DNA from: a virus
Length of the DNA stretch: 43,506 bases
Strand: one strand, 5' to 3'
IMG/VR virus record: IMGVR_UViG_3300023223_000185
Span: 1 to 43,506 of that record
The translations under genes were made by a program, and so were the position numbers. Position 1 is the first letter of the stretch. Each line of letters begins with the position of its first letter. The notes below the pieces were generated by a model, which saw only the letters and a program-made list of their open reading frames with translations, did not search any database and was not told the origin of the DNA. Below are positions 6,735 to 22,756 of this stretch, one piece after another.

Positions 6735-6847
6735 GGTGACGTAGCTCAATTGGTAGAGCGGTTTCGCCACGGTCGCTACAGAGGCCTCTGTTCACTAGCT
6801 TCCACTAATGGCGTTTCGGGTCGCAGGTTCGAATCCTGCCGTCGCCA
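6735..6847 (+). tRNA. tRNA-like gene with expanded anticodon region
   Basis: The acceptor arms GGTGACG (6735-6741) and CGTCGCC (6840-6846) pair over 7 bp with one G-U. The D-arm is GCTC ... GAGC (6744-6759) and the T-arm is GCAGG-TTCGAAT-CCTGC (6823-6839). Between D- and T-arm lie 63 nt instead of the usual 23 or so, giving 113 nt in total. No canonical 7-nt anticodon loop fits. CGCCA (6765-6769) pairs with TGGCG (6809-6813), and a CAGAGGCCTCTG palindrome lies within. It could be a tRNA with an insertion or tiny intron, a decayed tRNA, or a tRNA mimic. There is no encoded CCA; CTT follows the discriminator A. Confidence 0.5.
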
Positions 6848-9290: not shown

Positions 9291-9307
9291 AATAATTAAA
9301 GTTTGTT

Positions 9308-9412: not shown

Positions 9413-9423
9413 AAGTTGATATT

Positions 9424-9594: not shown

Positions 9595-9742
9595 CGAAAA
9601 AACGTGCGACTGCGGGTATCAGGAAAAGTATGATGCTTTGTTGGCTGAGTTTTTAGAGCTTCAATTAAAGTGTATAGATTATGCAGACAAGCTATTGGAT
9701 TATGGTGCTGAAAAACTGAAAGGGATGCAAGATGACGGATGA
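9587..9742 (+). CDS. 51-aa helical protein
   Basis: Begins MPDEKTCDCGYQEKY on the overlap with the previous gene and ends inside the ERF gene start. Residues 15-45 form an amphipathic helix (LLAEFLELQLKCIDYADKLL). The overlaps on both sides favour a real coupled gene. Confidence 0.5.
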   Translation: MPDEKTCDCGYQEKYDALLAEFLELQLKCIDYADKLLDYGAEKLKGMQDDG

Positions 9743-11233: not shown

Positions 11234-11252
11234 CACAGCCGAAAGGGAGAAC

Positions 11253-11600
11253 ATGGCGACGCATGAACAACGAAAGATAAGACGAAAATCAATGGCCCTT
11301 GCGGTTAAAAGTGGTTCCCTCATGGGTGAAACTGCTGAAATGTATGACGTGTCTGTGCATACAGTTAGAGATGCCTGCAAAGAAAACGGGGTAAATATCC
11401 CATTTGTTAATAGAACCAGCAACAAGGAAACCCACAGGGTGCCTCTGACCCATTTTCAGATAGTCGCCGATTTGCAAAATACGGTATTGACATACCAGGA
11501 GATAGGTGCTAAATATGGGGTGTCAAGAGAGCGAGTGCGTCAAATACGTGAATACGCAATCGCCTCAAAGATCAAGATGAACAGACGGAAAAGTAAATGA
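11253..11600 (+). CDS. double HTH regulator, sigma-region-4-like
   Basis: A 115-aa protein with two helix-turn-helix units. The first is GETAEMYDVSVHTVRDACKE (about residues 28-47). The second, TYQEIGAKYGVSRERVRQIREYA, carries the sigma70 region 4.2 signature G-V-S-R-E-R-V-R-Q-I. No region 2 is present, so it is not a complete sigma factor. It may bind promoter DNA as an activator or anti-sigma-like factor, or be a terminase-like DNA binder. It is a good candidate to switch on later operons (inference). Confidence 0.75.
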   Translation: MATHEQRKIRRKSMALAVKSGSLMGETAEMYDVSVHTVRDACKENGVNIPFVNRTSNKETHRVPLTHFQIVADLQNTVLTYQEIGAKYGVSRERVRQIREYAIASKIKMNRRKSK

Positions 11601-11630
11601 CGTAACAAATAACTTGCGAAAGGATTTGCA

Positions 11631-11810
11631 ATGTTGGTCTTAGAAAGACATTTAGACGAGTCGATCATTATCGGCGGGATCGTCAAAGTCACGCTTGTCC
11701 GCATTCAAGGCGACTTGGTTTATTTGGGAATCGAAGCGCCGAAATAAGTCACCATTCACCGTCAGGAAATCCAAGAGAGGATAGAGCGGGAGGAATCCAG
11801 TGGGAACTGA
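11631..11810 (+). pseudogene. csrA: CsrA homologue interrupted by in-frame TAA
   Basis: The reading frame MLVLERHLDESIIIGG ... GDLVYLGIEAPK is clear CsrA/RsmA, but codon 39 (11745-11747) is TAA. In the same frame, VTIHRQEIQERIEREE follows to TGA at 11808-11810. This is the normal CsrA C-terminal segment, with the (V)HRxEI motif that carries the RNA-binding arginine. E. coli CsrA reads APKEV at this point, so a single GAA to TAA change explains the break. The 38-aa product lacks β5 and the C-terminal helix. The next gene (GTG 11800) overlaps the full-length end, which suggests the intact form is ancestral. Sequencing error, decay or stop readthrough are all possible. Confidence 0.85.
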
Positions 11811-12012
11811 AAAAAAACTGCAAAATTTGATGGTCAAACTATCGGACAGGCTACAAATAATGGCTGAGGACTTGGCTGAACTTACTCGACTTAGCCGGTT
11901 CCTAGCCACCGACATGGTAACCACGATTATGACCAAAGACGAATGCGAGAAAGAGGTTGACCGACTGTTCGCCAAATACATGAAGGAATCCGATGAACAC
12001 GAAAAAGATTGA
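11800..12012 (+). CDS. 70-aa helical protein with GTG start
   Basis: GTG at 11800 follows GCGGGAGGAATCCA, a good ribosome-binding site. The protein is helical and charged (KLQNLMVKLSDRLQIMAEDLAELTRL, then CEKEVDRLFAKYM), so a coiled coil is likely. It overlaps the broken csrA upstream and the next gene downstream. Confidence 0.65.
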   Translation: MGTEKKLQNLMVKLSDRLQIMAEDLAELTRLSRFLATDMVTTIMTKDECEKEVDRLFAKYMKESDEHEKD

Positions 12013-12244
12013 GAAGCCGGGCGATTATGCTGGTTTGACATTCAAGGACTTGGAGATCGGCCAGTGTTTCGCGGTATGCGATATCGACCAGTTAAGCATG
12101 AAAACCGATAAATCAAAATCTAGTGACGGGAGCGGTCGAACATTTAATGGTTTTTGCTTCTACAACATGAAAAATGTGCAGTTTGTCCAAGACGCTAAAG
12201 TGCTCCTTGCTAACATGCACCCTATCGAATGGTGGGAAAATTGA
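11993..12244 (+). CDS. 83-aa small protein
   Basis: Begins MNTKKIEKPGDYAGLTFKDLEIGQCF. The G-x-T-F-x-D-L-x-x-G-x-x-F pattern resembles small phage proteins with a β-barrel look but is not assigned. It ends NMHPIEWWEN and overlaps both neighbours. Confidence 0.6.
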   Translation: MNTKKIEKPGDYAGLTFKDLEIGQCFAVCDIDQLSMKTDKSKSSDGSGRTFNGFCFYNMKNVQFVQDAKVLLANMHPIEWWEN

Positions 12245-12390
12245 AAATAATCAAAGTTATTGCGGGAGCAATTCATGTCGGTTTAGCTGGAGTTCTTATA
12301 GCTATAACGGGTATCTCTCTATTGCTGTACATTTTTGCAATACCAATTTTTGTTATTTTGGCAATTTATATAGTTTGGAATTTGGTATGA
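12241..12390 (+). CDS. 49-aa two-helix membrane protein, TTG start
   Basis: A TTG at 12241 overlaps the previous stop and opens a 49-residue frame that is nearly all hydrophobic (GAIHVGLAGVLIAITGISLL and FAIPIFVILAIYIVW). The frame ends on the start of the next gene (ATGA). The ribosome-binding site GGTGGG is fair. Two helices with a short loop give a holin-like layout, but nothing confirms the role. Confidence 0.5.
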   Translation: MKIIKVIAGAIHVGLAGVLIAITGISLLLYIFAIPIFVILAIYIVWNLV

Positions 12391-12908
12391 CCGATTCATT
12401 GTTCCCCGACGATCCACCGAAAAAGACCCGCAAGCGGAAGACCGATGCCCTGTGGGATGCAATGATCGCTATCTGGCCGCAATTAGATACGGCTCAGTTA
12501 AAGGGTCAATGCCGACGCTGGCATAAAGCGTTCAACGAATTAGGCGTCGAACCTTATGAATTACTGGCTTACGCAAAGAAGTATCAGAAAAAGTGCAGTG
12601 ACTATTTGCCCGATGTTGGGAACTTACCGAGTGCGGGAGCGTTGATAAATCAGTGGCATAATTGCAAGCCAGGTATCAGCGAGTGCCTGCGTTCGATGTA
12701 CGACGAATGGTTAAAGGATAAGCCGCCGTGGGTCAAGGATATGGAGTGCGGATATTACGTTTTCCTATTCATTGAAGGTAAGGCTGGTCGGATACCGGAC
12801 AAGTTGTTGAACGTGGCGAGGAAACAATGCAACGCCTACATCGCAAGTGAAGGTGACGCTGCGATCCTTCACGCGGTGGAGCAACTGGAGAAACGAAATG
12901 AAAATTGA
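12387..12908 (+). CDS. 173-aa protein of unknown function
   Basis: Starts at ATG 12387 (MTDSLFPDDPPKKTRKRKTDALWDAM); upstream open frame to 12174 overlaps other genes. The basic N-terminus is followed by helical blocks (LKGQCRRWHKAFNELGVEPYELL, CLRSMYDEWLKDKPPW). The 'DALWDAM ... W' opening followed by a helical bundle resembles phage replication-accessory proteins by context only. It sits between recombination genes and the RusA resolvase. Confidence 0.65.
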   Translation: MTDSLFPDDPPKKTRKRKTDALWDAMIAIWPQLDTAQLKGQCRRWHKAFNELGVEPYELLAYAKKYQKKCSDYLPDVGNLPSAGALINQWHNCKPGISECLRSMYDEWLKDKPPWVKDMECGYYVFLFIEGKAGRIPDKLLNVARKQCNAYIASEGDAAILHAVEQLEKRNEN

Positions 12909-13041
12909 ATGCGAAGTAGGCAGAAACGAATTACGTTGGTTCCCCCGCACGGGGTATCAGCGGTCTCTTGGGGCTGGGCGGCTGCGAAACTGTCCCAGTC
13001 CCTACTCCGCTTCGCTTTTTTTAAGGATGAGAAATGATTGA
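12898..13041 (+). CDS. doubtful 47-aa ORF over a leader and terminator
   Basis: A frame MKIECEVGRNELRW ... starts on the previous stop. Its first 33 nt match the TTGAAAATTGAAT leader (TGAAAATTGAAT, then GTAGGCAGAAACG), and its second half is the terminator-like hairpin. I regard the region as regulatory rather than coding. Confidence 0.15.
   Translation: MKIECEVGRNELRWFPRTGYQRSLGAGRLRNCPSPYSASLFLRMRND
12959..13022 (+). terminator. rho-independent terminator
   Basis: AGCGG (12959-12963) pairs with CCGCT (13007-13011). Inside this, GGGG pairs with TCCC and CTGGG with CCCAG, giving about 14 bp with internal loops. Seven T residues (13016-13022) follow. A second hairpin CCCC-N5-GGGG lies just upstream at about 12942-12954. 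It should end or attenuate transcription ahead of the RusA gene. Confidence 0.7.
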
Positions 13042-13393
13042 ACTTGAATTACCTTATCCTCCAACCATCAACCACTACTACGGTATGTCGGGGAAATTCA
13101 AGTACATCAAGCCGAAGGGTAAAGCGTTTCGTCGTGAGGTGGCTTCTGTGTGCATCTTGAAAAACGTACAGCCAATCGAAGGTCCGGTGGAAATTAAGAT
13201 CGCTATCTACCCGCCCGACAGACGGAAGCGTGATATTGACAACGTGCTCAAAGCATTGCTCGACGCATTAGAAAAAGGCGGTGCGTACAGAAACGACAGC
13301 CAGATAACGAAGCTGGTGATTGAAAAACTGGAAGTCCAAAAGGGCGGAACGTGTTTGGTAAGGATAGACGCCGCACGGAAAGGGATGAGATGA
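13034..13393 (+). CDS. rusA: RusA-type Holliday junction resolvase
   Basis: A 119-aa protein with the RusA fold markers. ELPYPPTINHYY is at the N-terminus. The catalytic cluster R-D67-I-D69-N70-V-L-K73 is followed by LLDAL-E and Asp88 in NDSQI. In RusA, paired aspartates bind Mg and the lysine aids cleavage; dimers cut four-way junctions. An AAGGATGAGAA ribosome-binding site precedes it. It probably resolves branched phage DNA before packaging. The length is normal. Confidence 0.92.
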   Translation: MIELELPYPPTINHYYGMSGKFKYIKPKGKAFRREVASVCILKNVQPIEGPVEIKIAIYPPDRRKRDIDNVLKALLDALEKGGAYRNDSQITKLVIEKLEVQKGGTCLVRIDAARKGMR

Positions 13394-13656
13394 TGGCTGA
13401 CTTAACTCACAAAGAAACTATGCGAAGATTAAAGTCTGAGGCAAAGATTAAGCTTAGATACATCCGACACCTGCATGTGAACGATATTCCGATGTATGAC
13501 GTGCTGGGCGACCCCGTACTGATGTGTCCGTATTGTAAGCGTGTTGGTACTTATGATTATTTTGATGTACTCGGCTGTAAGGGCCAGAGGATGATCTGTA
13601 ACGGATGCCATAGAGAAATAAACACCAAAAACACGGTAAAGGGCAGCCAAACCTGA
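13390..13656 (+). CDS. 88-aa zinc-ribbon protein
   Basis: ATG 13390 overlaps the RusA stop. The N-terminal half is helical and basic. The C-terminal half has CPYCKRVG and, about 21 residues after that pair, CNGCHRE, a four-Cys zinc ribbon. It may act on nucleic acids with RusA (context only). Confidence 0.65.
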   Translation: MMADLTHKETMRRLKSEAKIKLRYIRHLHVNDIPMYDVLGDPVLMCPYCKRVGTYDYFDVLGCKGQRMICNGCHREINTKNTVKGSQT

Positions 13657-13668
13657 TAGGAGATTAAA

Positions 13669-14460
13669 ATGAAATACGTATGGTTAGAGCTATTACACGA
13701 ACGCCAGTTCGACGAGATCATGTACGGCCTTTCCTTGTGGAAAAACAAGGTGGACAAGGCGATTGTGATTGTGAGCAAGGAATTTCTATATAGCAACCGC
13801 GATGATTGGGAACGCCTGCTAAAGAAGTACGAAGGTTTTATTGTAGCGGGATTAAAAACATCCGATTATGAAGGCGAGATAGACAGTTTAGAGTTCTGGG
13901 ATAATCTAAGGACTTGGCAATTAGAGGCTACGGAAAAATTGCCGTTCAACACACCATACGCCCTCGACATCGAGCTATCCCTCAAGCCTTATTACACCGG
14001 CAAAACGAACGACTGGGAATTGAACTTAACCACGATGGCTATCGGCATGTCGAAGTTACCAGCCGGTGCGATGATGTTCCCCGCTGCTTCTTACAACAAC
14101 AGCACAGTCCATCCGTGGCATGAATTCTTGTTACCCGTATCGAGACTATTCCACAAAATTCTCGGAGCCGAGTTAATCAACCTGAGCTACGCAACGCCTG
14201 GTTATGCGAACGACGGGCCGACACAGCAAGGCGTCAAGATGCGTGAGGACTTGCTAGCGATCACGCCAAAGGTCACAGAGTTGCTTTGGGTTTACAACAA
14301 GAGCAACAACGCGGGGTTGCCGTACTGGATGAACGATGAGGGCAGCACGATTAAAAAGCTGATGAGCATGAAGGGCGTCGAAAACTACATCATCCATCCA
14401 TCGGAATCTAACTACGTCGATTGCGGCAAGAAGTTCGCGTCACAAAAAGGCGGTGCGTGA
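13669..14460 (+). CDS. 263-aa protein of unknown function
   Basis: A TAGGAGATTAAA ribosome-binding site precedes ATG 13669. One of the largest early proteins, with no family recognised. The alternating β/α pattern (AIVIVSK ... YEGFIVAGLK ... YALDIELSLK ... AGAMMFPAASY ... ELLWVYNK ... ENYIIHP) and the acidic strand end ALDIE suggest a TIM-barrel-like fold, perhaps a hydrolase (inference). No signal peptide. An endolysin has not been found elsewhere in the window, so a lytic role should be tested. Confidence 0.65.
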   Translation: MKYVWLELLHERQFDEIMYGLSLWKNKVDKAIVIVSKEFLYSNRDDWERLLKKYEGFIVAGLKTSDYEGEIDSLEFWDNLRTWQLEATEKLPFNTPYALDIELSLKPYYTGKTNDWELNLTTMAIGMSKLPAGAMMFPAASYNNSTVHPWHEFLLPVSRLFHKILGAELINLSYATPGYANDGPTQQGVKMREDLLAITPKVTELLWVYNKSNNAGLPYWMNDEGSTIKKLMSMKGVENYIIHPSESNYVDCGKKFASQKGGA

Positions 14461-15545
14461 TGAGTAAGGTGATAACGGCTGAGATAAGTGATGCTCTATG
14501 CGAGGATGGAAAGAGTGTTCTAAACATTAGGTTTGGTGCTAACGAACATAACCACCAAATTCCGTGTTCGGACGATTACGCCCAAGAATTGTGTGACCAT
14601 CTTAAAATCTTCGACCCCGACCAGCAGGAAGGGGGGTGCCACCACGACTACTTGCATCACCCGACGAGGCCGGGTGAAAAATGTGTGAGATGTGGAACGG
14701 TCAAGGGTGAAGATCAAATCGTCCGCGAGCACAGCCGTGATGACGTGGGCGTGGCGAGGGGGCTTCTGGCCTGCATGAAGCAGTGTTTAGCTTTACTTGA
14801 TGACGGGTGCATGGATATCGAATGGACTCATGTGCGTAAGGAATTGCGTGGCGAGATAGACAAAGCCGAATTCCGCCTCGCCGATGCCAGGAATGATTGC
14901 ATGTACCCTTATTCTCAATGTAAAAAGATAAAGCTCACCGACGCCAAGCCGAAGCATATATGGGATGACGAAAGAATCTGGGATGCAGTTAGATTTATAA
15001 CTGCACGTTCTGGTCCATGCGTAAACCACAAACCGGGTTATGATTGTTTCAGCACTAACATAGGGCAAACTACTATCTGTGAGCCGTGCCAAGCAACGCG
15101 AGTCATTGACCAACTCAAGAACGACATGCCTTCCAACGCCAAGCCAGACGACCCGGCCACAACATATGAATTTTCCCAATGGGTGTTTGAGATAGGGGGG
15201 CGTCTGAATACGTTGGCTGGTAATTTACATAACAGGCTACGGTTCGAGGATTCAGAGGCATTACGAGCAATTGTTTACGACCTGGAGCAAATGCCGAAAC
15301 GTATGGCGTGTTATAAAGCCAAGCCAGACGACCCGGCGGTGGTGGATGAGGAAGTTTATGAAAGCATAGGTGATGAGCGAGTAGGCCAGCATTTAATTGA
15401 CACTGGTGTTATACAAAAACGCAAGTACAACCCAGCCGTTGTCAAGGCGTTGATTGATCTATTGCTGGATGCCGAATTACCAGAATCGTTAGCCGCGAAG
15501 GTTGGGTGCCTCATCGCCAAGCTGAAAGGGGCAAAAGATGAGTGA
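14460..15545 (+). CDS. 361-aa multidomain protein with Cys clusters
   Basis: Starts at ATG 14460 on the previous stop (TGATG). The middle has CHHDYLHHP ... CVRCG, a zinc-type cluster, followed by VARGLLACMKQCLALL ... AEFRLADA. That block resembles VARGLLEALKEE ... AISEAEAQL in the gene at 19726. KPDDPA occurs twice as a linker (SNAKPDDPATT, YKAKPDDPAVV), suggesting internal duplication or domain shuffling. Function is unknown. Confidence 0.65.
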   Translation: MSKVITAEISDALCEDGKSVLNIRFGANEHNHQIPCSDDYAQELCDHLKIFDPDQQEGGCHHDYLHHPTRPGEKCVRCGTVKGEDQIVREHSRDDVGVARGLLACMKQCLALLDDGCMDIEWTHVRKELRGEIDKAEFRLADARNDCMYPYSQCKKIKLTDAKPKHIWDDERIWDAVRFITARSGPCVNHKPGYDCFSTNIGQTTICEPCQATRVIDQLKNDMPSNAKPDDPATTYEFSQWVFEIGGRLNTLAGNLHNRLRFEDSEALRAIVYDLEQMPKRMACYKAKPDDPAVVDEEVYESIGDERVGQHLIDTGVIQKRKYNPAVVKALIDLLLDAELPESLAAKVGCLIAKLKGAKDE

Positions 15546-15735
15546 GTGGACGGTAAAGAAAACAATTAACCCAACATCTTATGACACTATGACTCTCAAT
15601 ACGGGTGAACACGAATTGACAATTCCTGCTTCAATCGAGAATGAAAAACTGTTCTATCAATTCCTTGCCGAGCACACCGCCCTGGAGAAGGTGAAGGTTG
15701 AACTTGAAGATATTGTCAAATCCCAACTAAAATGA
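15538..15735 (+). CDS. 65-aa MSEWTVK-family protein, C-terminus cut by TGA
   Basis: The start at ATG 15538 overlaps the previous stop. It shares MSEWTVK and AEH-x-AL-x-KVK with the gene at 4885. The paralogue continues into a Cys-containing tail. Here TGA (15733-15735) intervenes, but the same frame stays open beyond it as a Cys-rich tail. Confidence 0.65.
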   Translation: MSEWTVKKTINPTSYDTMTLNTGEHELTIPASIENEKLFYQFLAEHTALEKVKVELEDIVKSQLK

Positions 15736-15852
15736 ATCTGTTGTTTTAGTTGCGAAGCGGTAAACGGCGATGGTCATTACGATCATTGTCCAGTTCCAAA
15801 ACTGGAAACCCTGCTCGACGAACTCGCCAAGCGGGAGGGAGAAGCGGTATGA
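15736..15852 (+). pseudogene. in-frame Cys-rich tail without start codon
   Basis: After TGA 15733-15735 the same frame reads ICCFSCEAV ... HYDHCPVPKLETLLDELAKRE to TGA 15850-15852, which overlaps the next ATG. There is no usable start inside. The C-x2-C ... H ... C plus helix layout matches the tail position of the 4885 paralogue. This is a nonsense-interrupted gene or a readthrough extension. Confidence 0.55.
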
Positions 15853-16106
15853 ATCACTATCTTGAATTTTTAGAACAACCTTCAATCGGTCGCAAAACAA
15901 GAATATGGTCGTGCGTATCCAAGACACAACACACTGAATTGGGCGTTATCAAATGGTTTGCACAGTGGCGACAATATGTTTTTTATCCGGCCCCAGATAC
16001 GCTATTCAACACGGGCTGTTTGGGTGACATCGAAAAATTCATTAAACAAGAAATGCACAATTACAAATACGCGAATGGGTTGCCTGGAAAGCGGGTAAAT
16101 GCCTAA
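15849..16106 (+). CDS. 85-aa small protein
   Basis: ATG 15849 has GGGAGGGAGAAGCGGT upstream, a strong ribosome-binding site inside the preceding tail. The protein is aromatic and β/α mixed (IWSCVSKTQHTELGVIKWFAQWRQYVFYP). It looks like a compact globular protein; no family is recognised. Confidence 0.65.
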   Translation: MNHYLEFLEQPSIGRKTRIWSCVSKTQHTELGVIKWFAQWRQYVFYPAPDTLFNTGCLGDIEKFIKQEMHNYKYANGLPGKRVNA

Positions 16107-16146
16107 CCCGATAATATACGTTATGTTGCGTTGAGAAAGGAAAATT

Positions 16147-16434
16147 ATGAGCAATAGTAGATGCACTGAATGTCATACCATTCTGGACAATGACGAAGAC
16201 AACGTATGTGCGAAATGTTTCCAAGAAGCATCTGTTTCCGAGTTTCCAGAGCTGGTGTTTACGGTATACCCACCTGCAAGATATTCAACATCTGGACAAT
16301 GGACAGGGCGTTGCATACTTGGAAATAAACTATCTCAGATAGTGGTGAAGGGTAGAGACGAACAAAATTGTAGAGATGTTATCGATACTGCTGCATGTAT
16401 ACTCGGATTTCGGGCAGTGATCGACACCCCATAA
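16147..16434 (+). CDS. 95-aa protein with N-terminal zinc ribbon
   Basis: An AGAAAGGAAAATT ribosome-binding site precedes ATG 16147. CTEC and CAKC within the first 28 residues form a zinc ribbon. A β-rich part follows (FTVYPPARYSTSGQWTGRCI). The leader upstream has the TATGTTGCGTTGAG type. Confidence 0.65.
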   Translation: MSNSRCTECHTILDNDEDNVCAKCFQEASVSEFPELVFTVYPPARYSTSGQWTGRCILGNKLSQIVVKGRDEQNCRDVIDTAACILGFRAVIDTP

Positions 16435-16454
16435 CCCCCGACGCGGAGAATGAG

Positions 16455-16823
16455 ATGGTGTGGGAACACAAATTATACGGATCAGGCACGCAAGTAGTGT
16501 CGCAAAACGATTGCAACGAGCCTCACTTATATGTGTATGGCCCACGATTATTAAGCGACAAGGAATGTTGTCACGAACGAAGTGCGGTGTGTCAAGATTT
16601 GCGAGATTTCTTGAATGGTGGTGAGCGACCTGATTGGTTGGATGATTTAGAGAGAATAAGCGAGGATGAATTGCGGGGAGTTGACGGTACATCGATTCGA
16701 TCCACTGGCCCTATGTATGATTGCGACCCACCGAAACTTAACTGGAAAGAATGTGCGGACGAAGGATCACAAGCTAAACGTGCTCGGCTTATAGATCGTG
16801 TTGTCGGTCTGCACGTCCGCTAA
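16455..16823 (+). CDS. 122-aa small protein
   Basis: ATG 16455 follows GCGGAGAATGAG. It is acidic, with Cys-containing segments (DKECCHERSAVCQDL) and a Trp-Leu-Asp-Asp-Leu-Glu stretch. No family is recognised. The 3' end (LHVR) overlaps the 5' box of a 40-nt leader. Confidence 0.6.
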   Translation: MVWEHKLYGSGTQVVSQNDCNEPHLYVYGPRLLSDKECCHERSAVCQDLRDFLNGGERPDWLDDLERISEDELRGVDGTSIRSTGPMYDCDPPKLNWKECADEGSQAKRARLIDRVVGLHVR

Positions 16824-16853
16824 CATGGGTTACGTTACGCTCGAATATAGGAC
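16814..16853 (+). repeat. 40-nt leader element, copy F
   Basis: The 5' box is CGTCCGCTAAC and the 3' box is CTCGAATATAGGAC. It aligns without gaps to copies B-E. GTCC/GGAC arms are kept although the inner sequence differs most. It shares CGTCCGCTAACATGGGT with the leader at 18227. Confidence 0.7.
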
Positions 16854-16860
16854 TATAGCA

Positions 16861-17049
16861 ATGGAAGATACCTTGGATTTTGTAATTTCGCAATGGGATG
16901 ATGAGTGGTCATTGACTATGTTTGTTACTGATTATTATATACCATACGATTCCAGCATTCGTTACGCTAGCAAAAAGGCCGCCATAAGAGACGCACTAAA
17001 AACTGCGAAAGCATTCAACAAAAAACCCGATATAGAGTTTACGTCATGA
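16861..17049 (+). CDS. 62-aa small protein
   Basis: The start at ATG 16861 (MEDTLDFVISQWDDEWSL) lies just after the 40-nt element, in preference to 16825, which is inside it. An acidic N-terminus is followed by a helix (KKAAIRDALKTAKAF). Function is unknown. Confidence 0.6.
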   Translation: MEDTLDFVISQWDDEWSLTMFVTDYYIPYDSSIRYASKKAAIRDALKTAKAFNKKPDIEFTS

Positions 17050-17150
17050 GGCAAATAGAACATTGGTTATGTTGCGTTACGGATGCGTGGGATGGAATGC
17101 TCAGTAATGAGAAATCTGCAAAAGCCCACGTTATCCGTAACGTCCCATAA
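17046..17150 (+). CDS. 34-aa small protein
   Basis: ATG 17046 overlaps the previous stop. The frame MRQIEHWLCCVTDAWDG ends in RNVP, and the last codons plus stop form the 5' box (CGTCCCATAA) of the next 40-nt leader. Plausible coupled mini-gene, but small. Confidence 0.4.
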   Translation: MRQIEHWLCCVTDAWDGMLSNEKSAKAHVIRNVP

Positions 17151-17180
17151 GAATAAATACATAACATTCGATTATAGGAA
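17141..17180 (+). repeat. 40-nt leader element, copy C
   Basis: The 5' box CGTCCCATAAG and 3' box ATTCGATTATAGGA match, with ATAA/TTAT arms complementary. A GAAAGGA ribosome-binding site and the gene at 17195 follow. Confidence 0.8.
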
Positions 17181-17194
17181 TTAGAAAGGAAATC

Positions 17195-17491
17195 ATGAAT
17201 AAGCAATGCGTTAAATGTGGAGCGGATACAACAGCCGAAAAGGTATTCTGTGCCGAGGTGAAGGATTATCATTGCACGCATAAAGAATGCGGATACAAGG
17301 AATTGCGGGTAATAGAGCACCCTGTTTTTAATCCAGATGATATCGAGACGCTGATTGCAGCCAGTTTGAATGCCCATGCCAGGCTCGCGGTCTATGTTGA
17401 TATGGATGATAGTGCGGGGGCGGGTGTAGGGAGAGCGGTGTACGACAGACTCACCGCAGCTCTCGCCAAAACGAAAGCAGCAACGTCCTAG
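17195..17491 (+). CDS. 98-aa protein with zinc ribbon
   Basis: A TTAGAAAGGAAATC ribosome-binding site leads to ATG 17195. MNKQCVKCGADTT opens a ribbon completed by C and CTHKEC; the form C-x2-C-G ... C-x4-C resembles the 'rubredoxin-like' phage zinc proteins. The C-terminal half is an Ala-rich helix. It precedes the Thg1-like gene. Confidence 0.65.
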   Translation: MNKQCVKCGADTTAEKVFCAEVKDYHCTHKECGYKELRVIEHPVFNPDDIETLIAASLNAHARLAVYVDMDDSAGAGVGRAVYDRLTAALAKTKAATS

Positions 17492-17515
17492 AATATATGT
17501 TGCGTAGGAGAAAAC

Positions 17516-18220
17516 ATGAACTTAGACGAACGCATGAAAAATTATGAACGATCCGTTGGCAATCGGCTTACCATGCGGTGTCCAGCAATTATTCGTCTTG
17601 ATGGCAGGGCTTTCCATACATTTACGAGGTCATTCGCCAGGCCTTATGACAATGTTTTCAGGTCATTGATGGTAGGTACTGCGATTGCTATGTGCGAAGA
17701 AATATCTACCGCTGTATACGCTTATGGTCAATCTGATGAAATTTCCATACTTATGAATGATTACACGCTATTCAATACCGAACAATACTTTGGTGGTTCG
17801 GTGCAAAAGATAACGTCTGTAGTGTCATCTGTGGCAACGAACGCTTTCAATCGGGAACTACGCAAGCATGGATTACATGATAAATTATTCAAGGCGACCT
17901 TCGACGCGAGAGTATTTTCAATACCGGAACGCGATGCCTCTAATTACTTCGTTTGGCGACAACGGGATTGCATCCGAAATTCCATCCTGAGTCTCGGGCA
18001 GAGTTGTTTTTCTCATAAGCAATTGCACGGCAAATCTTGCGAGGACATCAAAAACATGCTGGCGGGGCCATCTATTCTCTCGCCGTGGGAGAATGAATCC
18101 CTCGAATTCAAGTACGGGTTTGTCGTCCAGTATGAAACTGTAGGAGGATGGGAACTGTCTTTAACGCGGGAAATAGAAGTGAATCATATAGAGTATTTAT
18201 TGCAGCCACGTGAGGATTAA
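17516..18220 (+). CDS. thg1: Thg1-like 3'-5' nucleotidyltransferase
   Basis: A 234-aa member of the tRNA(His) guanylyltransferase/Thg1-like family, which adds nucleotides in the 3'-5' direction to the 5' end of RNA. IIRLDGRAFHTFTRSF puts the metal aspartate at D29, the same number as in human Thg1. YGQSDEISIL gives the second D74-E75. FDARVFSIP and YFVWRQRDCIRNSI complete the fold. The eukaryotic HINNLYN loop is replaced by RNSI, the form seen in bacterial and archaeal Thg1-like proteins that repair truncated tRNA 5' ends. A GTAGGAGAAAAC ribosome-binding site precedes it. It may repair phage or host tRNA damaged by anticodon or other nucleases (inference). Confidence 0.93.
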   Translation: MNLDERMKNYERSVGNRLTMRCPAIIRLDGRAFHTFTRSFARPYDNVFRSLMVGTAIAMCEEISTAVYAYGQSDEISILMNDYTLFNTEQYFGGSVQKITSVVSSVATNAFNRELRKHGLHDKLFKATFDARVFSIPERDASNYFVWRQRDCIRNSILSLGQSCFSHKQLHGKSCEDIKNMLAGPSILSPWENESLEFKYGFVVQYETVGGWELSLTREIEVNHIEYLLQPRED

Positions 18221-18226
18221 AGCTAA

Positions 18227-18256
18227 CGTCCGCTAACATGGGTATGTTGCATAGAA
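18227..18256 (+). repeat. CGTCCGCTAAC/TGTTGCAT leader
   Basis: The first 17 nt (CGTCCGCTAACATGGGT) are identical to copy F of the 40-nt element, but it continues as ATGTTGCATAG, the second leader type (compare about 16120-16135 and 17490-17505). It links the two leader families. Confidence 0.6.
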
Positions 18257-19060
18257 ATGAACATTAACGCAGATAAAATAATCGAATTACTTGAAATTAA
18301 ACATTCCAAAGATGTCTTTGTTTCTGAATGTAAGGTGGGGCCGTCGCAGGGGCATATGTGCCCCCGTATGGACGGCTGGGCAATGCGTAAATCTTGGGCG
18401 AACCCATCGTTTATAGGCTACGAAGTTAAAGTCAGCCGGGGTGATTTTGTTCAGGATCAGAAATGGCGTGTGTATTTGAAATACTGTAACCAATTCTACT
18501 TTGTGTGCCCCACGGGGCTGATCAAAAAAGAAGAATTGCCGAACGATACCGGATTGATCTATTTATCAAAAACGGGCAGCAAGCTGTTCATAAAGAAAAT
18601 AGCTCCGCACCGCGAAGTATCGATCCCCGTTGAATTATTTATGTACATACTGATGGCTCGGACAGAGATCACCGCTAGTCAATTCACCGGCTACAGAGGA
18701 AGTGAAAATAAACTCGCATGGTGGAAGGATTGGTTGGCCAAAAAAGATGAAAACAAAATTGTAGGGTGGAATGTTTCCAAAAAAATTCAACAATTGATAG
18801 AAAAACGAATAGATGATGTAGAATCCAAGAACGCCCAATTGTCGGAAGAGATCAGTAAACTCCAAGAGGTTAAAAAGCTATGTGGTGATTTGGGTATAAA
18901 ACTGGATATGGGCTGGCGGTTTACCCAGCATCTAAAGGATCGAATCGACATGATAAAAGGTAAGGGGTATATCGACGATATTGATAATGCCATAAAAAAC
19001 CTAACCCAAATAAAAGAAAGTTTCAATATTTGCGAAGCGTCAGGGGCCATAGTCCCATAA
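18257..19060 (+). CDS. MmcB-like PD-(D/E)XK nuclease
   Basis: A 267-aa protein. The N-terminal 130 residues match the MmcB/DUF-type restriction-fold family: D39 in PRMDGWAM, then E56-V-K58 in FIGYEVKVSRGDFVQDQKW, then YCNQFYFVCPTGLI and ELPNDTGLIYL. This arrangement (D ... E-x-K, then 'N-x-F-Y-x-V-x-P-x-G-L-I') is typical of DNA repair nuclease-like MmcB proteins. The C-terminal half has a coiled coil (KRIDDVESKNAQLSEEISKL). It may cleave host DNA or serve repair. The ribosome-binding site is weak. Confidence 0.8.
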   Translation: MNINADKIIELLEIKHSKDVFVSECKVGPSQGHMCPRMDGWAMRKSWANPSFIGYEVKVSRGDFVQDQKWRVYLKYCNQFYFVCPTGLIKKEELPNDTGLIYLSKTGSKLFIKKIAPHREVSIPVELFMYILMARTEITASQFTGYRGSENKLAWWKDWLAKKDENKIVGWNVSKKIQQLIEKRIDDVESKNAQLSEEISKLQEVKKLCGDLGIKLDMGWRFTQHLKDRIDMIKGKGYIDDIDNAIKNLTQIKESFNICEASGAIVP

Positions 19061-19090
19061 GAATAATTATGTGGTATTCGACTATCGGAC
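19051..19090 (+). repeat. 40-nt leader element, copy D
   Basis: It starts AGTCCCATAAG over the last codons of the upstream gene (…IVP-stop) and ends ATTCGACTATCGGAC. GTCC/GGAC and ATA/TAT pair around one C-C mismatch. It precedes an AGAAAGGA ribosome-binding site. Confidence 0.8.
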
Positions 19091-19105
19091 TAAGAAAGGA
19101 AAAAC

Positions 19106-19303
19106 ATGGAAAAATCATCTACAGCTTCAAGTACCAGGACTATCATTAGGTTTAGTCGGGAGGAAACCATTACGGCGTTGAAAGAATACGCAGAACGTAA
19201 TGGCGAGACTCTCCCTGATGGAAGGTTTTTTGTATGGTCACCGTCGTCTGGCGATTCTATATGTGAACGCGACAGCTTAACTACGCTGGGCGTAGATCAT
19301 TGA
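19106..19303 (+). CDS. 65-aa small protein
   Basis: A TAAGAAAGGAAAAAC ribosome-binding site leads to MEKSSTASSTRTIIRFSREETITALKEYA. The REE-x-x-x-AL-x-EY helix and a final β stretch suggest a small DNA- or RNA-binding fold. No family is recognised. Confidence 0.6.
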   Translation: MEKSSTASSTRTIIRFSREETITALKEYAERNGETLPDGRFFVWSPSSGDSICERDSLTTLGVDH

Positions 19304-19315
19304 AGTAGCGAAATA

Positions 19316-19384
19316 GCGAAGTAGGCAGCGGGTAGCTGCATACGGTGCAAGCGACCACAGTGATGATCCCGTTGCCCGCTTCGC
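19316..19384 (+). ncRNA. structured intergenic element (69 nt)
   Basis: A long hairpin is built of GCGAAG/CTTCGC (19316-19321 with 19379-19384), an internal loop, GGCA/TGCC (19324-19327 with 19373-19376), a 1-nt mismatch and CGGG/CCCG (19329-19332 with 19368-19371). The 35-nt apical part holds a TGCA-N5-TGCA stem. It is not followed by a T-run, so it is not a terminator. It could be a leader-regulating RNA or small RNA upstream of the gene at 19399. Confidence 0.5.
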
Positions 19385-19398
19385 AGTAGGAGAGTGTG

Positions 19399-19506
19399 AT
19401 GACCGATGAACAAGTTAAGCAGATCGTAGATGCGATACAGACTTTCAACATTTCCCTTTTGATAAGCCTATTAGGGGTCATTCTTGCTATTTGTACAAGG
19501 AAATAA
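19399..19506 (+). CDS. 35-aa single-helix membrane protein
   Basis: A GTAGGAGAGTGTG ribosome-binding site precedes ATG 19399. An acidic/amphipathic start MTDEQVKQIVDAIQTF is followed by one helix (ISLLISLLGVILAICT) and a basic end. It resembles phage mini membrane proteins. Confidence 0.5.
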   Translation: MTDEQVKQIVDAIQTFNISLLISLLGVILAICTRK

Positions 19507-19508
19507 AA

Positions 19509-19733
19509 ATGACCGAGCCGACGATCTGCGTGAAGTGTAAGCACTTCCTCGACGAAGAATTGATCGAGCCAATAGCTTTCCCGTCGATTTGTAAACTCGC
19601 AAGAATCGAGGCTGGTTGGGAAGCTATAGATTACCCAACAGGCGTAAAAATAAGGAGCTTTTGTTGCGAGGACATCAACCACGGCAAATGTCCGCACTTT
19701 GCGAAACCAGAAACGGAGGTGGATTATGGATGA
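19509..19733 (+). CDS. 74-aa Cys-rich zinc protein
   Basis: ATG 19509 gives MTEPTICVKCKHFLDEELIEP. Cysteines at CVKC, then C (SICKLA), CC and C (GKCPHF) give six cysteines. The C-x2-C-x-H/Y-F opening with later ...C-P-H-F is typical of small phage proteins with a zinc fold. It overlaps the next gene. Confidence 0.65.
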   Translation: MTEPTICVKCKHFLDEELIEPIAFPSICKLARIEAGWEAIDYPTGVKIRSFCCEDINHGKCPHFAKPETEVDYG

Positions 19734-20262
19734 AACAACAAGAAAAGAAAAAGAAATGATACTCGCAGGCGGGGGGCAGTACGCACGCAAGGGTGACACC
19801 CCCGCCCCCGACCAGGCGGTAGCGAGGGGGTTGCTGGAAGCACTGAAAGAGGAAGAATATCAAATAAACAGACTATGTGAAGCTAAGGATAAAAATATGG
19901 GCGTGTGTTGGGATATGCCCAGCTGCTTGGCGACGCGGGATAGGTTGCGTCAAGCAATATCAGAGGCCGAAGCCCAACTCGGCGAGCCGGAGGAAATCCT
20001 ACGGGATAACATCAAAGTATCTAAAGAAACCTTACCGGATGGAACGGAATTAACCTTCATGTCTAAGCCGGAGATGCTGGAGTTTGAGATACACAAGTAC
20101 AAATCAGAATGTTATCTTAGTTATCGTTTGGCTGGTTACTATTGCAGAACAACTTTTTCAGTAGTCGTGTATGACGAGCTTCCATCTGTAGCCCACGCCA
20201 TCGCCAAAAGTCTGGGAATGGTCGCCGCGTTCCCGAAGGAGAAATCAGATGAAAGTGCATAA
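19726..20262 (+). CDS. 178-aa protein, shares VARGLL block with 14460 gene
   Basis: ATG 19726 follows ACGGAGGTGGATT. Residues 24-70 (QAVARGLLEALKEE ... ATRDRLRQAISEAEAQL) resemble the block in the 14460 gene. The remainder is β/α (EFEIHKYKSECYLSYRLAGYYCRTTFSVVV). It may bind a partner through the shared helical block. Function is unknown. Confidence 0.65.
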   Translation: MDETTRKEKEMILAGGGQYARKGDTPAPDQAVARGLLEALKEEEYQINRLCEAKDKNMGVCWDMPSCLATRDRLRQAISEAEAQLGEPEEILRDNIKVSKETLPDGTELTFMSKPEMLEFEIHKYKSECYLSYRLAGYYCRTTFSVVVYDELPSVAHAIAKSLGMVAAFPKEKSDESA

Positions 20263-20437
20263 ACAGGGGGAAACATACTCTTACGTTTCATTTGGTGCGA
20301 CTCCTTACACTTCTTATTATACCGTATGTGGGTTGAATGTGCATCGTGACTCTAATCTCGAAACTGTAGAAACATGGCGTGGTATTCCAAAAAAGAAACG
20401 GTGCCTCAACTGCCTCAAGCGGAAGGAGAAAGGATGA
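20249..20437 (+). CDS. 62-aa small protein with CxxC
   Basis: The start at 20249 overlaps the upstream gene. It has aromatic β strands (YSYVSFGATPYTSYYTVCGL) and a CLNCLKRKE end; with the earlier Cys and His it could form a zinc site. No family is recognised. Confidence 0.55.
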   Translation: MKVHKQGETYSYVSFGATPYTSYYTVCGLNVHRDSNLETVETWRGIPKKKRCLNCLKRKEKG

Positions 20438-20538
20438 AACGACTATGGTGCTGGATGTTTCACGGTTGGGCGTGGGTAGAAATGTATGAGCAGCCCGACA
20501 GGATGATATGCGTTGTATGTGGAAGGACGAAACAATGA
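20434..20538 (+). CDS. 34-aa Trp/Cys miniprotein
   Basis: Overlaps the previous stop and has an AAGGAGAAAGG ribosome-binding site. MKRLWCWMFHGWAWVEM ... CVVCGRTKQ contains CxxC plus an earlier Cys and His, consistent with a zinc knuckle. The pattern W-C-x-x-x-H-x-W recalls short phage proteins of this kind. Confidence 0.5.
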   Translation: MKRLWCWMFHGWAWVEMYEQPDRMICVVCGRTKQ

Positions 20539-20591
20539 CAACGAGCGACGGAAAATGGAAGTGGATACTAATTGATACTAATGACTACTAA
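20535..20591 (+). CDS. 18-aa ORF
   Basis: Coupled start on the previous stop (ATGACAACG), reading MTTSDGKWKWILIDTNDY. Too short to judge; listed for completeness. Confidence 0.2.
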   Translation: MTTSDGKWKWILIDTNDY

Positions 20592-20732
20592 AATTAGTAT
20601 TCAAGTGCGTTTCCAGCCCCTAAACGCGGGTTGCAGGATATTGGACCCTTTGGCGGTTTATAGTGTATAATTCAAACAGCTGCGTCCGTCGGCGACACAG
20701 CGAGAATTCCGTCTGATACGGATTGATTTAGA
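20592..20732 (+). other. intergenic region before the lysis-like group
   Basis: This 141-nt gap contains a candidate promoter (20641-20671) and a short dyad AAT-CCGT ... ACGG-ATT near 20706-20725. No gene is seen. It separates early genes from the group with holin-like and lipoprotein genes, so it may start a separate transcript. Confidence 0.5.
20641..20671 (+). promoter_or_regulatory. candidate sigma70-type promoter
   Basis: TTGGAC (20641-20646) and a perfect TATAAT (20666-20671) are separated by 19 nt, slightly long. It would begin a transcript for the genes from 20733 on. Confidence 0.45.
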
Positions 20733-20951
20733 ATGGGTGACTGTAAAGGTAACGGTTGGGATCAACACAAGATCGATGTATTGAACAGGCTGGACAAAAT
20801 AGAGAAAACGCAAGAGGCGCAGACTAAATGGCTAACTAAGATTCATACGCTCGTACAAGTCGGGCGTGCTTCACTCTGGGCGACTGTTGTCACGGTGTCT
20901 TTTATAATCTCGGCCGTGATAAGCGTTGCCGCGATATACTTTAACAAATAA
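20733..20951 (+). CDS. 72-aa XhlA-like membrane protein
   Basis: A coiled N-terminal part (HKIDVLNRLDKIEKTQEAQTKW) precedes one membrane segment near the C-terminus (LWATVVTVSFIISAVISVAAI). This helix-then-anchor layout is seen in the XhlA/haemolysin and phage MHB-type accessory lysis proteins. It heads the late-early lysis-like cluster. The role is inferred from layout only. Confidence 0.55.
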   Translation: MGDCKGNGWDQHKIDVLNRLDKIEKTQEAQTKWLTKIHTLVQVGRASLWATVVTVSFIISAVISVAAIYFNK

Positions 20952-20962
20952 GGAGAATCAAA

Positions 20963-21316
20963 ATGCGTAGATTATCGATTATGGCCGTATCCTTGGCCGT
21001 GGCTGGACTTTCGGCGGGCTGTGGCTTCATGGCCAAAAACGACTCTTTCTCTATGTGGGGGCCAAACAAAGACGGCGTAATACAAGACGGGAATGCAAAC
21101 GGAATGCCCCCAACGGATAGCGTAGCGAGTTTCTATATCCAAGCTCCCGAATTTATGCTCGGCGGGCGTTTGGACGCGAAGGCTGCGGCTATCGTAGTTA
21201 TTGATGGCGTTGCAGAGGTTGGGACAAACGTCGCAACGGCTGTAATTCTCCCGACATTCTCCCTGTTTAAGCCTATTGTAGAGACGATTTTCGGTCCACC
21301 AGCTAATGGCACGTAA
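20963..21316 (+). CDS. 117-aa predicted lipoprotein
   Basis: An AAGGAGAATCAAA ribosome-binding site precedes it. Signal peptide RRLSIMAVSLAVAGLSAGC has a lipobox (LSAGC, Cys20). The mature part is hydrophilic, then has hydrophobic β segments (AAAIVVIDGVAEVGTNVATAV ... FKPIVETIFGPP). A phage lipoprotein could be an outer spanin or an exclusion protein; not resolved. Confidence 0.7.
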   Translation: MRRLSIMAVSLAVAGLSAGCGFMAKNDSFSMWGPNKDGVIQDGNANGMPPTDSVASFYIQAPEFMLGGRLDAKAAAIVVIDGVAEVGTNVATAVILPTFSLFKPIVETIFGPPANGT

Positions 21317-21419
21317 GAGGCGTGAAGCCTTCATAGCCGTTGTTGAATACTTAGTGCTCTTTGCGGTCGCTGCGGCGTTCGTATTGTTCGTGTGGTACGC
21401 TAAGAACCGCACAAATTAG
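21306..21419 (+). CDS. 37-aa membrane protein
   Basis: ATG 21306 overlaps the lipoprotein stop. The basic start MARKRREAF is followed by one helix (IAVVEYLVLFAVAAAFVLFVWY) and a short basic end. Coupled to the lipoprotein, it could form a two-gene membrane unit such as a spanin pair, though it is short for an inner spanin. Confidence 0.55.
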   Translation: MARKRREAFIAVVEYLVLFAVAAAFVLFVWYAKNRTN

Positions 21420-21501
21420 AACACCCTGAAAGTTATTCTAATTTCGGGGCGATTATTGGAATGGACTGACCATTTTGTTAAGGTCAACAAAAAGGTGTGA
21501 T

Positions 21502-21795
21502 ATGAACCGACGCTCATTGTTGAAACTGATACCGGCTGTGTTCGCGGCTCCGTTGGCGTTGCTGGCGGGTAAGAAGGCGGTGGAAGCCGGGTCAGAAAAA
21601 AACATTTGGCATCCTTCAAAGAATGGACATAGCGTCCGTATGGGTAACGGACTCTCTGTCAACTATGATAAAGTATATCAATTTCATCCCAACCAAACGG
21701 TTGTGTTGCCGACCAATGGAACGATAAATGGATTGTCCGTCATGCGGGGCGATGTGATAACAATCGACAAAGATGGCGAAGTGAGCATAACATGA
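21502..21795 (+). CDS. 97-aa protein with twin-arginine-like signal
   Basis: The start at ATG 21502 has AAAAAGGTGTGATA upstream. The N-terminus MNRRSLLKLIPAVFAAPLAL is a Tat-type signal (N-R-R-S-L-L-K) with a short hydrophobic core and AGKKAVEAGS after. The mature part is β-rich (GLSVNYDKVYQFHPNQTVVLP ... GDVITIDKDGEVSIT). Export of a folded protein by a phage gene is unusual; a lipoyl-like or small β-barrel domain is possible. Confidence 0.6.
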   Translation: MNRRSLLKLIPAVFAAPLALLAGKKAVEAGSEKNIWHPSKNGHSVRMGNGLSVNYDKVYQFHPNQTVVLPTNGTINGLSVMRGDVITIDKDGEVSIT

Positions 21796-22067
21796 AAACC
21801 GAACAATGTCAGCAAAATAAATTACTCGGCGTGTCACCGAAAATGGATATATCAACCTATTTGATGATGCGGGAAGAATTGGTGATGAGTATGGCGATGA
21901 GTATGGCTATTCCACATGAACTTTTATCCAATCACAAAGGATCAACCTTAGATGGTGATCGTTTGATTATGCACTCGACTGATTTCAATGGATTCTATGC
22001 GCCTTTGTATAAGCCCAATACGGACGATACACCGGAAACCACAATTAGAATGTGGAGAGATGCCTAA
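21792..22067 (+). CDS. 91-aa small protein
   Basis: ATG 21792 overlaps the previous stop. A Met-rich helix with repeated MSMAMSMAI (residues about 33-41) follows the start. No family is recognised. Confidence 0.55.
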   Translation: MKTEQCQQNKLLGVSPKMDISTYLMMREELVMSMAMSMAIPHELLSNHKGSTLDGDRLIMHSTDFNGFYAPLYKPNTDDTPETTIRMWRDA

Positions 22068-22069
22068 CA

Positions 22070-22252
22070 ATGCCAACTAAACGCAGACATATCGACGTTG
22101 GAGTAGGATTCGTAGCGCTTACCCTGCTTATATGCTGGACGTGCATATCGAGCGGATGCAGTATCCACCTCATGTGTAAACATTACCACGATACCCAGAA
22201 GCACGTAAAAGGTATCGAAATAACAATACCGGAGAAAACAGATGAAGATTAA
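22070..22252 (+). CDS. 60-aa predicted lipoprotein
   Basis: From ATG 22070 (MPTKRRHIDVGVGFVALTLL) a signal peptide ends in a lipobox ISSGC (Cys at about residue 30). The mature part is only about 30 residues (SIHLMCKHYHDTQKHVKG…). Small lipoproteins of this kind next to holin-like genes are often outer spanins (Rz1-like), although the Pro-rich character is missing. Confidence 0.55.
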   Translation: MPTKRRHIDVGVGFVALTLLICWTCISSGCSIHLMCKHYHDTQKHVKGIEITIPEKTDED

Positions 22253-22421
22253 TGGCAATAAGACTTATATCGGAATGATCGCGGCTGGCTTATTTGGGAT
22301 CGGCATCGCTCAGGGCTGGATGTCTTGGGATGATGGATGGGTCCAAACGATAGCAGCGGTTATCGGCATGTGGTCGGGCGTTGCGATCAAGCATAGCACG
22401 GACAAGAAAAAAGCTGGGTGA
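22242..22421 (+). CDS. 59-aa holin-like membrane protein
   Basis: ATG 22242 overlaps the lipoprotein end. Two helices (TYIGMIAAGLFGIGIAQGW and VQTIAAVIGMWSGVAIKH) with a short loop and a lysine-rich end (STDKKKAG) have the size and layout of class II holins. This is the best holin candidate in the window. It was not confirmed by family. Confidence 0.65.
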   Translation: MKINGNKTYIGMIAAGLFGIGIAQGWMSWDDGWVQTIAAVIGMWSGVAIKHSTDKKKAG

Positions 22422-22422
22422 T

Positions 22423-22641
22423 ATGAAGTTAGACACTACTAATTGGCCAATATGCAACGGGTGTGGTGAAAGGTTTAATGATCCGCAGGATTGTGTTGGT
22501 CTACTTGGCCTGTGTGAATATTGCTATTATCCATCTTTAGGGCTTATAGGAACCATCAACAACCGGGCATGGGCAACCGATGAAGCGTGCAACGGCGGGT
22601 GGTCAAACGTAGTCCGTGCATATGAGGATACCAATGCTTAA
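22423..22641 (+). CDS. 72-aa zinc-finger-like protein
   Basis: ATG 22423, in the frame MKLDTTNWPICNGCGERF. Cys pairs CNGC, and CEYC about 20 residues on, form a ribbon. NWPICNGC resembles RWPICEVC of the gene at 3381, so the two may be distant paralogues. Confidence 0.6.
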   Translation: MKLDTTNWPICNGCGERFNDPQDCVGLLGLCEYCYYPSLGLIGTINNRAWATDEACNGGWSNVVRAYEDTNA

Positions 22642-22756
22642 CGACCAGCTACTCCGCGAGGCGATCTACGCAGACTTCCTAGCTCCGTGGTGGAATATCA
22701 TAGCTGAATTGACCAAGTGGTACATCGGGATACTGGCGTCGATCTTCGGTGGTTGA
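22634..22756 (+). CDS. 40-aa small membrane-associated protein
   Basis: ATG 22634 overlaps the previous stop. MLNDQLLREAIYADFLAPWW, then an amphipathic/hydrophobic helix (LTKWYIGILASIFGG). Last rightward gene; it ends 2 nt before the convergent fibre gene. Confidence 0.5.
   Translation: MLNDQLLREAIYADFLAPWWNIIAELTKWYIGILASIFGG

What the first reader, a model, noticed from the sequence alone, without database searches (positions are those of the whole stretch)
17516..18220. Phage Thg1-like 3'-5' polymerase
D29, D74-E75 and the WRQ-x-D-x-x-RNSI form place this in the Thg1-like group able to repair RNA 5' ends. Such enzymes are rare in phages. A phage tRNA-repair enzyme would counter host tRNA-cleaving defences, or act on the odd tRNA-like RNA at 6735.
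Basis: partly seen in the sequence, partly recalled or inferred. Interest (0 to 1): 0.65.

Follow-up and report, generated by a model that had tools for sequence, protein, structure and literature searches.

The report
Phage Thg1-like tRNA 5'-end repair enzyme
This phage carries an intact member of the only enzyme family known to build RNA backwards (3' to 5'), a kind already known from many, mostly large, phages; the more surprising result came from chasing its proposed RNA partner, which led to phage tRNA genes that are interrupted or circularly permuted.

Summary
The ORF at 17516-18220 is a complete Thg1-like protein (TLP): Pfam Thg1 E=9e-32, PHROG_4717 E=1e-68, AlphaFold pLDDT 86, best solved match Bacillus thuringiensis TLP (TM 0.83), all catalytic residues present. 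It sits in a phage early operon and groups loosely with other viral TLPs. 'Rare in phages' is wrong: 125 INPHARED records and at least 594 IMG/VR stretches encode relatives, and a tRNA-repair, anti-defence role was proposed in 2010 and 2021. So it is a new, divergent member of a known kind, in a small (43.5 kb) genome record. Most likely work: template-directed 5'-end repair of tRNA-shaped RNAs (inferred). The RNA at 6735-6847 is real: intact acceptor, D and T arms, but an enlarged anticodon domain that no single excision turns into a normal one. Following it, I found in other phages (a) interrupted tRNAs with a covarying hairpin plus ACAGCAA inserted in the anticodon region and (b) circularly permuted tRNA genes using the same element, also in cultured jumbo phages (BF, GAP32, XbC2). 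Phages with the interrupted tRNAs carry a TLP more often than tRNA-matched controls (14/34 versus 1/18), but shared ancestry is not excluded. That by-product deserves its own study.

The parts
17516..18220 (+). Thg1-like protein (TLP), 234 aa, predicted 3'-5' RNA polymerase
   Evidence: Pfam PF04446 8.7e-32; PHROG_4717 1.5e-68; BtTLP 1.6e-38; AF2 model pLDDT 85.9, Foldseek 4kgm TM 0.83
17600..17602 (+). D29, metal-binding carboxylate
   Evidence: translation and alignment
17735..17740 (+). D74-E75, metal-binding carboxylate pair
   Evidence: translation and alignment
17954..17986 (+). WRQRDCIRNSI (147-157): TLP form of the motif that reads WRQ-D-HINN in eukaryotic Thg1
   Evidence: alignment to 4kgk and 3otb; N155 kept in 173 of 173
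6735..6847 (+). tRNA-like RNA: 7-bp acceptor stem, D arm and T arm intact, enlarged anticodon domain (63 nt between D arm and T stem), no encoded CCA; possible but unproven TLP substrate
   Evidence: Rfam tRNA 47.1 bits; sequence; fold; no ARAGORN tRNA; no excision restores a normal anticodon arm

Best explanation
The gene encodes a working Thg1-like protein of the bacterial and phage TLP type. It would activate the 5'-monophosphate of a tRNA-shaped RNA with ATP or GTP, then add nucleotides in the 3'-5' direction, each templated by the opposite strand of the acceptor stem, until the stem is full length. It would read only the acceptor and T arms and not the anticodon. In this phage the most likely use is to restore 5' ends of tRNAs or tRNA-like RNAs lost during infection (nuclease damage or imprecise processing), possibly including the phage's own RNA at 6735-6847. 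Shown here: family membership, complete active site, predicted fold, phage context. Inferred from characterised relatives: chemistry and substrate class. Not shown: activity, the natural substrate, the opposing nuclease.
For: Family and active site. Fold: AF2 pLDDT 85.9 and 32 solved Thg1/TLP chains at E<=0.001, best BtTLP (TM 0.83). All bacterial and archaeal TLPs tested prefer to repair 5'-truncated tRNAs, and MaTLP contacts only acceptor and T arms (PMC6471195; PMC3701042). No tRNA-His among the phage tRNAs near 80 viral TLP genes and none in the window. In some phages the TLP lies near RNA-repair genes: polynucleotide kinase in Pound, a 2'-5' RNA ligase in Weasels2, an RNA ligase 1 in phiA009.
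Against: No PNK, RNA ligase or recognised tRNA was identified in the window, so a complete repair kit is not evident; several early ORFs have no family. The ATP-activation lysine (K43 of BtTLP) is R42 here, though R is found in 74 of 173 relatives. The protein has the longest end branch in the tree (1.85), so altered function cannot be excluded. No RNA or protein of this phage has been assayed.
Confidence: 0.62

Rival explanations
1. It matures tRNA-His by adding G-1, like eukaryotic Thg1.
For: Family name and database labels ('tRNA-His guanylyltransferase').
Against: TLPs add Watson-Crick-templated nucleotides and bacteria encode G-1 (PMC3701042). The H-I-N-N motif of Thg1 is replaced by I-R-N-S. 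No tRNA-His in the window and none among the tRNAs beside viral TLP genes.
Confidence: 0.05
2. It helps mature phage tRNAs with disrupted genes: inserts in the anticodon region (interrupted tRNAs), circularly permuted genes, and the odd RNA at 6735-6847. Processing of such precursors could leave short or damaged 5' ends that a templated 3'-5' polymerase rebuilds.
For: Class-A interrupted tRNAs: TLP in 14 of 34 records of 80 kb or more versus 1 of 18 canonical-tRNA control records, Fisher p=0.009. RtcB (2/32 versus 2/18) and T4 RNA ligase 1 (6/32 versus 2/18) show no comparable contrast. tRNA-model hits 108-140 nt long: 5 of 58 in TLP loci versus 1 of 189 in controls, with the caveat below. Large records with permuted tRNAs L246 and L292 both carry a TLP. 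In XbC2 and Kaldavass the 3' and 5' acceptor strands of a permuted gene abut with no spacer.
Against: Lineage is not controlled: the 14 TLPs fall into 5 clusters at 50% identity, and collapsing them removes significance, p=0.37. 20 of 34 class-A records show no TLP. In 50 TLP-bearing records the strict interrupted pattern is found once, canonical tRNAs in 9. Of the 5 long hits, on inspection only L050 is a clear class-A gene, L035 is part of a permuted one, L053 is odd but not class A and L089 looks spurious. The window's RNA lacks the class-A motif and does not restore a normal tRNA.
Confidence: 0.18
3. It acts on non-tRNA RNA, for example 5'-adenylylating or extending other RNA ends, or has lost polymerase activity.
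For: Long branch; K43 to R change.
Against: Every residue conserved for catalysis is kept and the predicted fold is complete.
Confidence: 0.1
4. It is a stray host gene picked up by misassembly or recent capture.
For: Close relatives also lie on bacterial contigs, some of which may be prophages.
Against: It lies co-directional in a run of small phage early genes between 17195-17491 and an MmcB-like phage gene, phrog_5429; base composition is even across the window; its tree neighbours are mostly viral, though support is weak.
Confidence: 0.02

Closest known systems
Bacillus thuringiensis TLP (BtTLP; PDB 4kgk, 4kgm)
   Same: Closest solved relative (E 1.6e-38; TM 0.83), same carboxylates, E12/E11, R28/R27 and the TLP-type WRQ-D-NS motif
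   Different: ATP-contacting K43 is R42 here; divergent C-terminal 50 residues; encoded by a 43.5-kb phage
Phage TLPs of PHROG_4717 (XacN1, 201phi2-1, phage G, Eldridge, Pound, Weasels2, CBB)
   Same: Same family, 30-39% identity over full length to the 11 annotated phage TLPs aligned, same invariant residues
   Different: The named carriers listed are almost all phages over 100 kb with several tRNA genes; this genome record is 43.5 kb with no recognised tRNA
Methanosarcina acetivorans TLP (PDB 5axk-5axn)
   Same: Same fold (TM about 0.75); reads acceptor and T arms only (PMC6471195)
   Different: Only about 25% identity in the structural alignment
Lak megaphage tRNA introns (PMC6784885)
   Same: Closest published report for the by-product: phage tRNAs carrying short enigmatic introns
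   Different: Those were reported for one phage group; the inserts here lie mostly at positions 28/29 or 29/30 and share a hairpin plus ACAGCAA. Whether the Lak introns carry that motif was not checked, and no paper held here describes permuted tRNA genes in phages

Membership tests
Thg1 superfamily (PF04446) | Profile match over the catalytic palm domain | tested here: met
   8.7e-32, profile positions 2-130 of 130
Thg1 superfamily (PF04446) | Three metal-binding carboxylates (D29, D74, E75) | tested here: met
Thg1 superfamily (PF04446) | Thg1 fold | tested here: met
   AF2 pLDDT 85.9; 32 Thg1/TLP chains at E<=0.001
TLP subgroup | Sequence closer to bacterial and phage TLPs than to eukaryotic Thg1; no H-I-N-N motif | tested here: met
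   BtTLP 135 bits versus human Thg1 55 bits; WRQRDCIRNSI instead of WRQADCHINNLY
TLP subgroup | Conserved lysine for ATP activation (K43 of BtTLP) | tested here: not met
   R42 here; R in 74 and K in 89 of 173 relatives, so not defining
TLP subgroup | Templated 3'-5' addition to 5'-truncated tRNA | not testable with these tools
   needs an enzyme assay
Phage anti-defence RNA-repair system | Ligase, kinase or tRNAs encoded beside the TLP | tested here: not met
   none recognised in the window; present beside some other phage TLPs
Class-A interrupted tRNA (for the RNA at 6735) | Insert with hairpin followed by ACAGCAA; excision restores a normal anticodon arm | tested here: not met
   motif absent; no restoring excision; model R1 matches the tRNA parts but the insert hairpin poorly

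The most novel reading that the evidence does not exclude
Phage TLPs serve a phage-specific tRNA maturation pathway: they rebuild 5' ends of tRNAs made from interrupted and circularly permuted phage genes, and the RNA at 6735-6847 is this phage's divergent substrate of that pathway.
Probability: 0.13. Interest if true: 0.88.

Novelty: new member of a known kind. Interest (0 to 1): 0.42.

Why it matters
As a TLP it adds one divergent member, in an unusually small phage genome record, to a family whose natural role in bacteria and phages is still unknown. Its wider value is the lead it gave: tRNA genes of many phages are interrupted by a small conserved RNA element, and some are circularly permuted around that element. 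If transcribed and joined, phages would have a tRNA-splicing route that is neither a group I intron nor (as far as tested here) a described family, and phage TLPs are candidate participants.

Tried and rejected
Host contamination: rejected. tRNA-His maturation: disfavoured. K43 to R as a sign of lost function: rejected, R is common in relatives. Close relatives of the whole phage: none by megablast of 3300-22700, none for the TLP, one 15-kb fragment by portal protein. The 6735 RNA in other phages: no blastn match, no exact pattern match. The 6735 RNA as a tRNA with an anticodon-loop intron: ARAGORN found a reading only at a lowered threshold with 32 nt excised; strict excision test negative. 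Strict TLP-to-interrupted-tRNA link: not found when starting from TLP records. RtcB or T4 RNA ligase 1 as the partner of interrupted tRNAs: no enrichment of note. Weak Y RNA-like (YrlA) matches at the interrupted tRNAs span neighbouring tRNAs and lie far below the gathering score.

Full report
CHECK. The ORF at 17516-18220 (+) is complete, with ATG, TAA and an AGGAG upstream. It matches Pfam Thg1 at 8.7e-32, PHROG_4717 at 1.5e-68 and solved BtTLP at 1.6e-38. In an alignment of 173 relatives S73, D74, E75, K98, D151 and N155 are invariant and D29 and E11 are kept in 170 with only gaps otherwise. The AlphaFold model (18 aligned loci, pLDDT 85.9, pTM 0.86) finds 32 solved Thg1/TLP chains at E<=0.001, best BtTLP with ATP (TM 0.83).

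CONTEXT. The window is an IMG/VR virus record of 43,506 bases with TerL, portal, capsid, adaptor and tape-measure genes on the minus strand and Erf, YqaJ, RusA and MmcB-like genes on the plus strand. The TLP lies in the plus-strand run of small early genes. No PNK, RNA ligase or ARAGORN tRNA was recognised. Three early ORFs (12174-15545) have no family.

DISTRIBUTION. 125 INPHARED records encode a relative, all below 60% identity. So the gene is common, mainly in large phages, and 'rare in phages' is not supported. In a tree of 173 rows phage and bacterial TLPs are interleaved; the window row falls loosely among viral rows (support 84-87, not starred) and has the longest end branch, 1.85.

WHAT IT DOES. 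Characterised bacterial and archaeal TLPs prefer templated repair of 5'-truncated tRNAs and do not read the anticodon (PMC6471195; PMC3701042). The phage copy keeps what that chemistry needs. K43, the ATP-specific activation lysine, is R42 here as in 74 of 173 relatives. Near 80 viral TLP genes the recognised tRNAs include none for His. I therefore prefer 5'-end repair over G-1 addition. That such repair counters host nucleases is an existing proposal (PMC2904730; PMC7824862), untested here.

THE RNA AT 6735-6847. Rfam calls it tRNA (47.1 bits). Acceptor GGUGACG/CGUCGCC, D arm and T arm are intact, but 63 nt separate D arm and T stem. The tRNA-like fold is the predicted minimum, although overall stability is ordinary (z -1.0). 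No single excision gives a 5-bp anticodon stem with a U33 loop. Its downstream spacer is one of several GGC-rich intergenic tracts. No similar sequence was found elsewhere. Whether the TLP acts on it is open.

BY-PRODUCT 1, INTERRUPTED tRNAs. A large class, here called A, carries a hairpin followed by ACAGCAA. In 68 unique class-A genes with acceptor pairing, excising the insert restores a normal anticodon arm (5 pairs, U33, purine 37) in 42, mostly at 28/29 or 29/30, with at least 15 anticodons; controls give 0.9 (shuffled) and 9.8 (5' ends swapped, maximum 18). The hairpin is present in 60 of 72 against 15.6 in shuffles, and in an alignment of 30 all seven of its pairs show compensatory changes. 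The alignment was made from genes chosen by motif, so the invariance of ACAGCAA and of the D and T arms is by construction; the hairpin was not part of the selection. In named phages such genes are annotated 'tRNA-Undet' (Synechococcus phage B23), 'tRNA-Pseudo' (Aeromonas phage Ahp1_CNU-2021) or a 122-nt tRNA-Lys (XbC2, Kaldavass). The closest paper is the Lak megaphage report of enigmatic tRNA introns.

BY-PRODUCT 2, PERMUTED tRNAs. In several loci the 3' half (ACAGCAA to acceptor) lies upstream of the 5' half, with the two strands of the hairpin at the two ends of the unit. A scan requiring T arm, D-arm motif, at least 6/7 acceptor pairs and a trans hairpin of 5 bp or more found 18 unique cases and none in two shuffles of all held loci. 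Of 162 distinct ACAGCAA-to-T-arm 3' halves, 101 have the 5' half upstream only, 21 downstream only. One is shared by cultured jumbo phages BF, GAP32, XbC2 and Kaldavass. Its trans hairpin changes from GGAATTC/GAATTCC (BF, GAP32) to GGAATTT/AAATTCC (XbC2, Kaldavass), and a possible anticodon stem changes as GCCAC/GTAGC, GTCGC/GCAAC, GCCGC/GCAGC with one constant C-A mismatch (read by eye). It is not annotated as a tRNA in any of the four records. Anticodon-arm restoration in the 18 is weaker: 6, null mean 3.7, p about 0.004. No held paper reports permuted tRNA genes in phages; the library lacks most subscription papers, so this is not proof of novelty.

LINK TO TLP. Class-A records of 80 kb or more: 14 of 34 have a TLP. 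Control records of that size with canonical tRNAs: 1 of 18; Fisher p=0.009. RtcB 2/32 versus 2/18 and T4 RNA ligase 1 6/32 versus 2/18 (one of the two below cut-off) do not differ much. But the 14 TLPs form 5 clusters at 50% identity and the contrast vanishes if only they are collapsed (p=0.37). Starting from 50 TLP records the strict interrupted pattern occurs once against 9 with canonical tRNAs. A second count, long hits of the tRNA model (5/58 versus 1/189, p=0.003), is weaker than it looks, because on inspection only two of the five belong to class A, one of them permuted. The association is a lead, not a result.

VERDICT. The finding is sound as an identification and ordinary as a discovery. 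The RNA lead attached to it opened something that may be new and should be handled as a separate finding.

Noticed in passing
L180:10535-10648, L217:5-121, L261:474-588, L290:2477-2591, L436:905-1026 and about 60 more: Class-A interrupted tRNA genes in viral contigs: covarying hairpin plus ACAGCAA inserted mostly at tRNA position 28/29 or 29/30; excision restores a normal anticodon arm in 42 of 68.
   Followed up: partly
L499:2531-2700 (Serratia phage BF), L500:2497-2665 (GAP32), L501:2488-2655 (XbC2), L502:2494-2660 (Kaldavass); also L184, L050, L079, L035, L292, L440, L443: Circularly permuted tRNA genes in phages, 3' half before 5' half, using the same hairpin and ACAGCAA element in split form; compensatory changes between phages; not annotated as tRNAs.
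   Followed up: partly
L188, L196, L207, L220, L240, L281: Class-B interrupted tRNAs: a longer hairpin insert ending in GTTAC(TT) or GTTAT at position 28/29; excision restores Arg, Cys, Ile and other anticodon arms.
   Followed up: partly
L195, L246, L228, L293, L248 and L233, L420: Further tRNA-like RNAs with recurrent central sequences, CTCATGGTGAAGGRCC...GC...GGG.ATAAA and TCAATGGAAACATTGTTAAGGAAAGTAA, found in unrelated contigs; not explained.
   Followed up: no
window 6856-7045, 7727-8010, 8530-8630, 9300-9400: Intergenic tracts built of short GGC-containing units (AGGC, TGGC, GGCT), including a perfect 44-bp tandem duplication at 7763-7853; one follows the tRNA-like RNA directly.
   Followed up: no
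window 12174-15545: Three consecutive early ORFs (244, 263 and 374 aa as called from first start) with no Pfam or PHROG match.
   Followed up: no
window 1528-1953 (-): Short ORF with a collagen-like triple-helix repeat (Pfam Collagen 2.7e-07).
   Followed up: no
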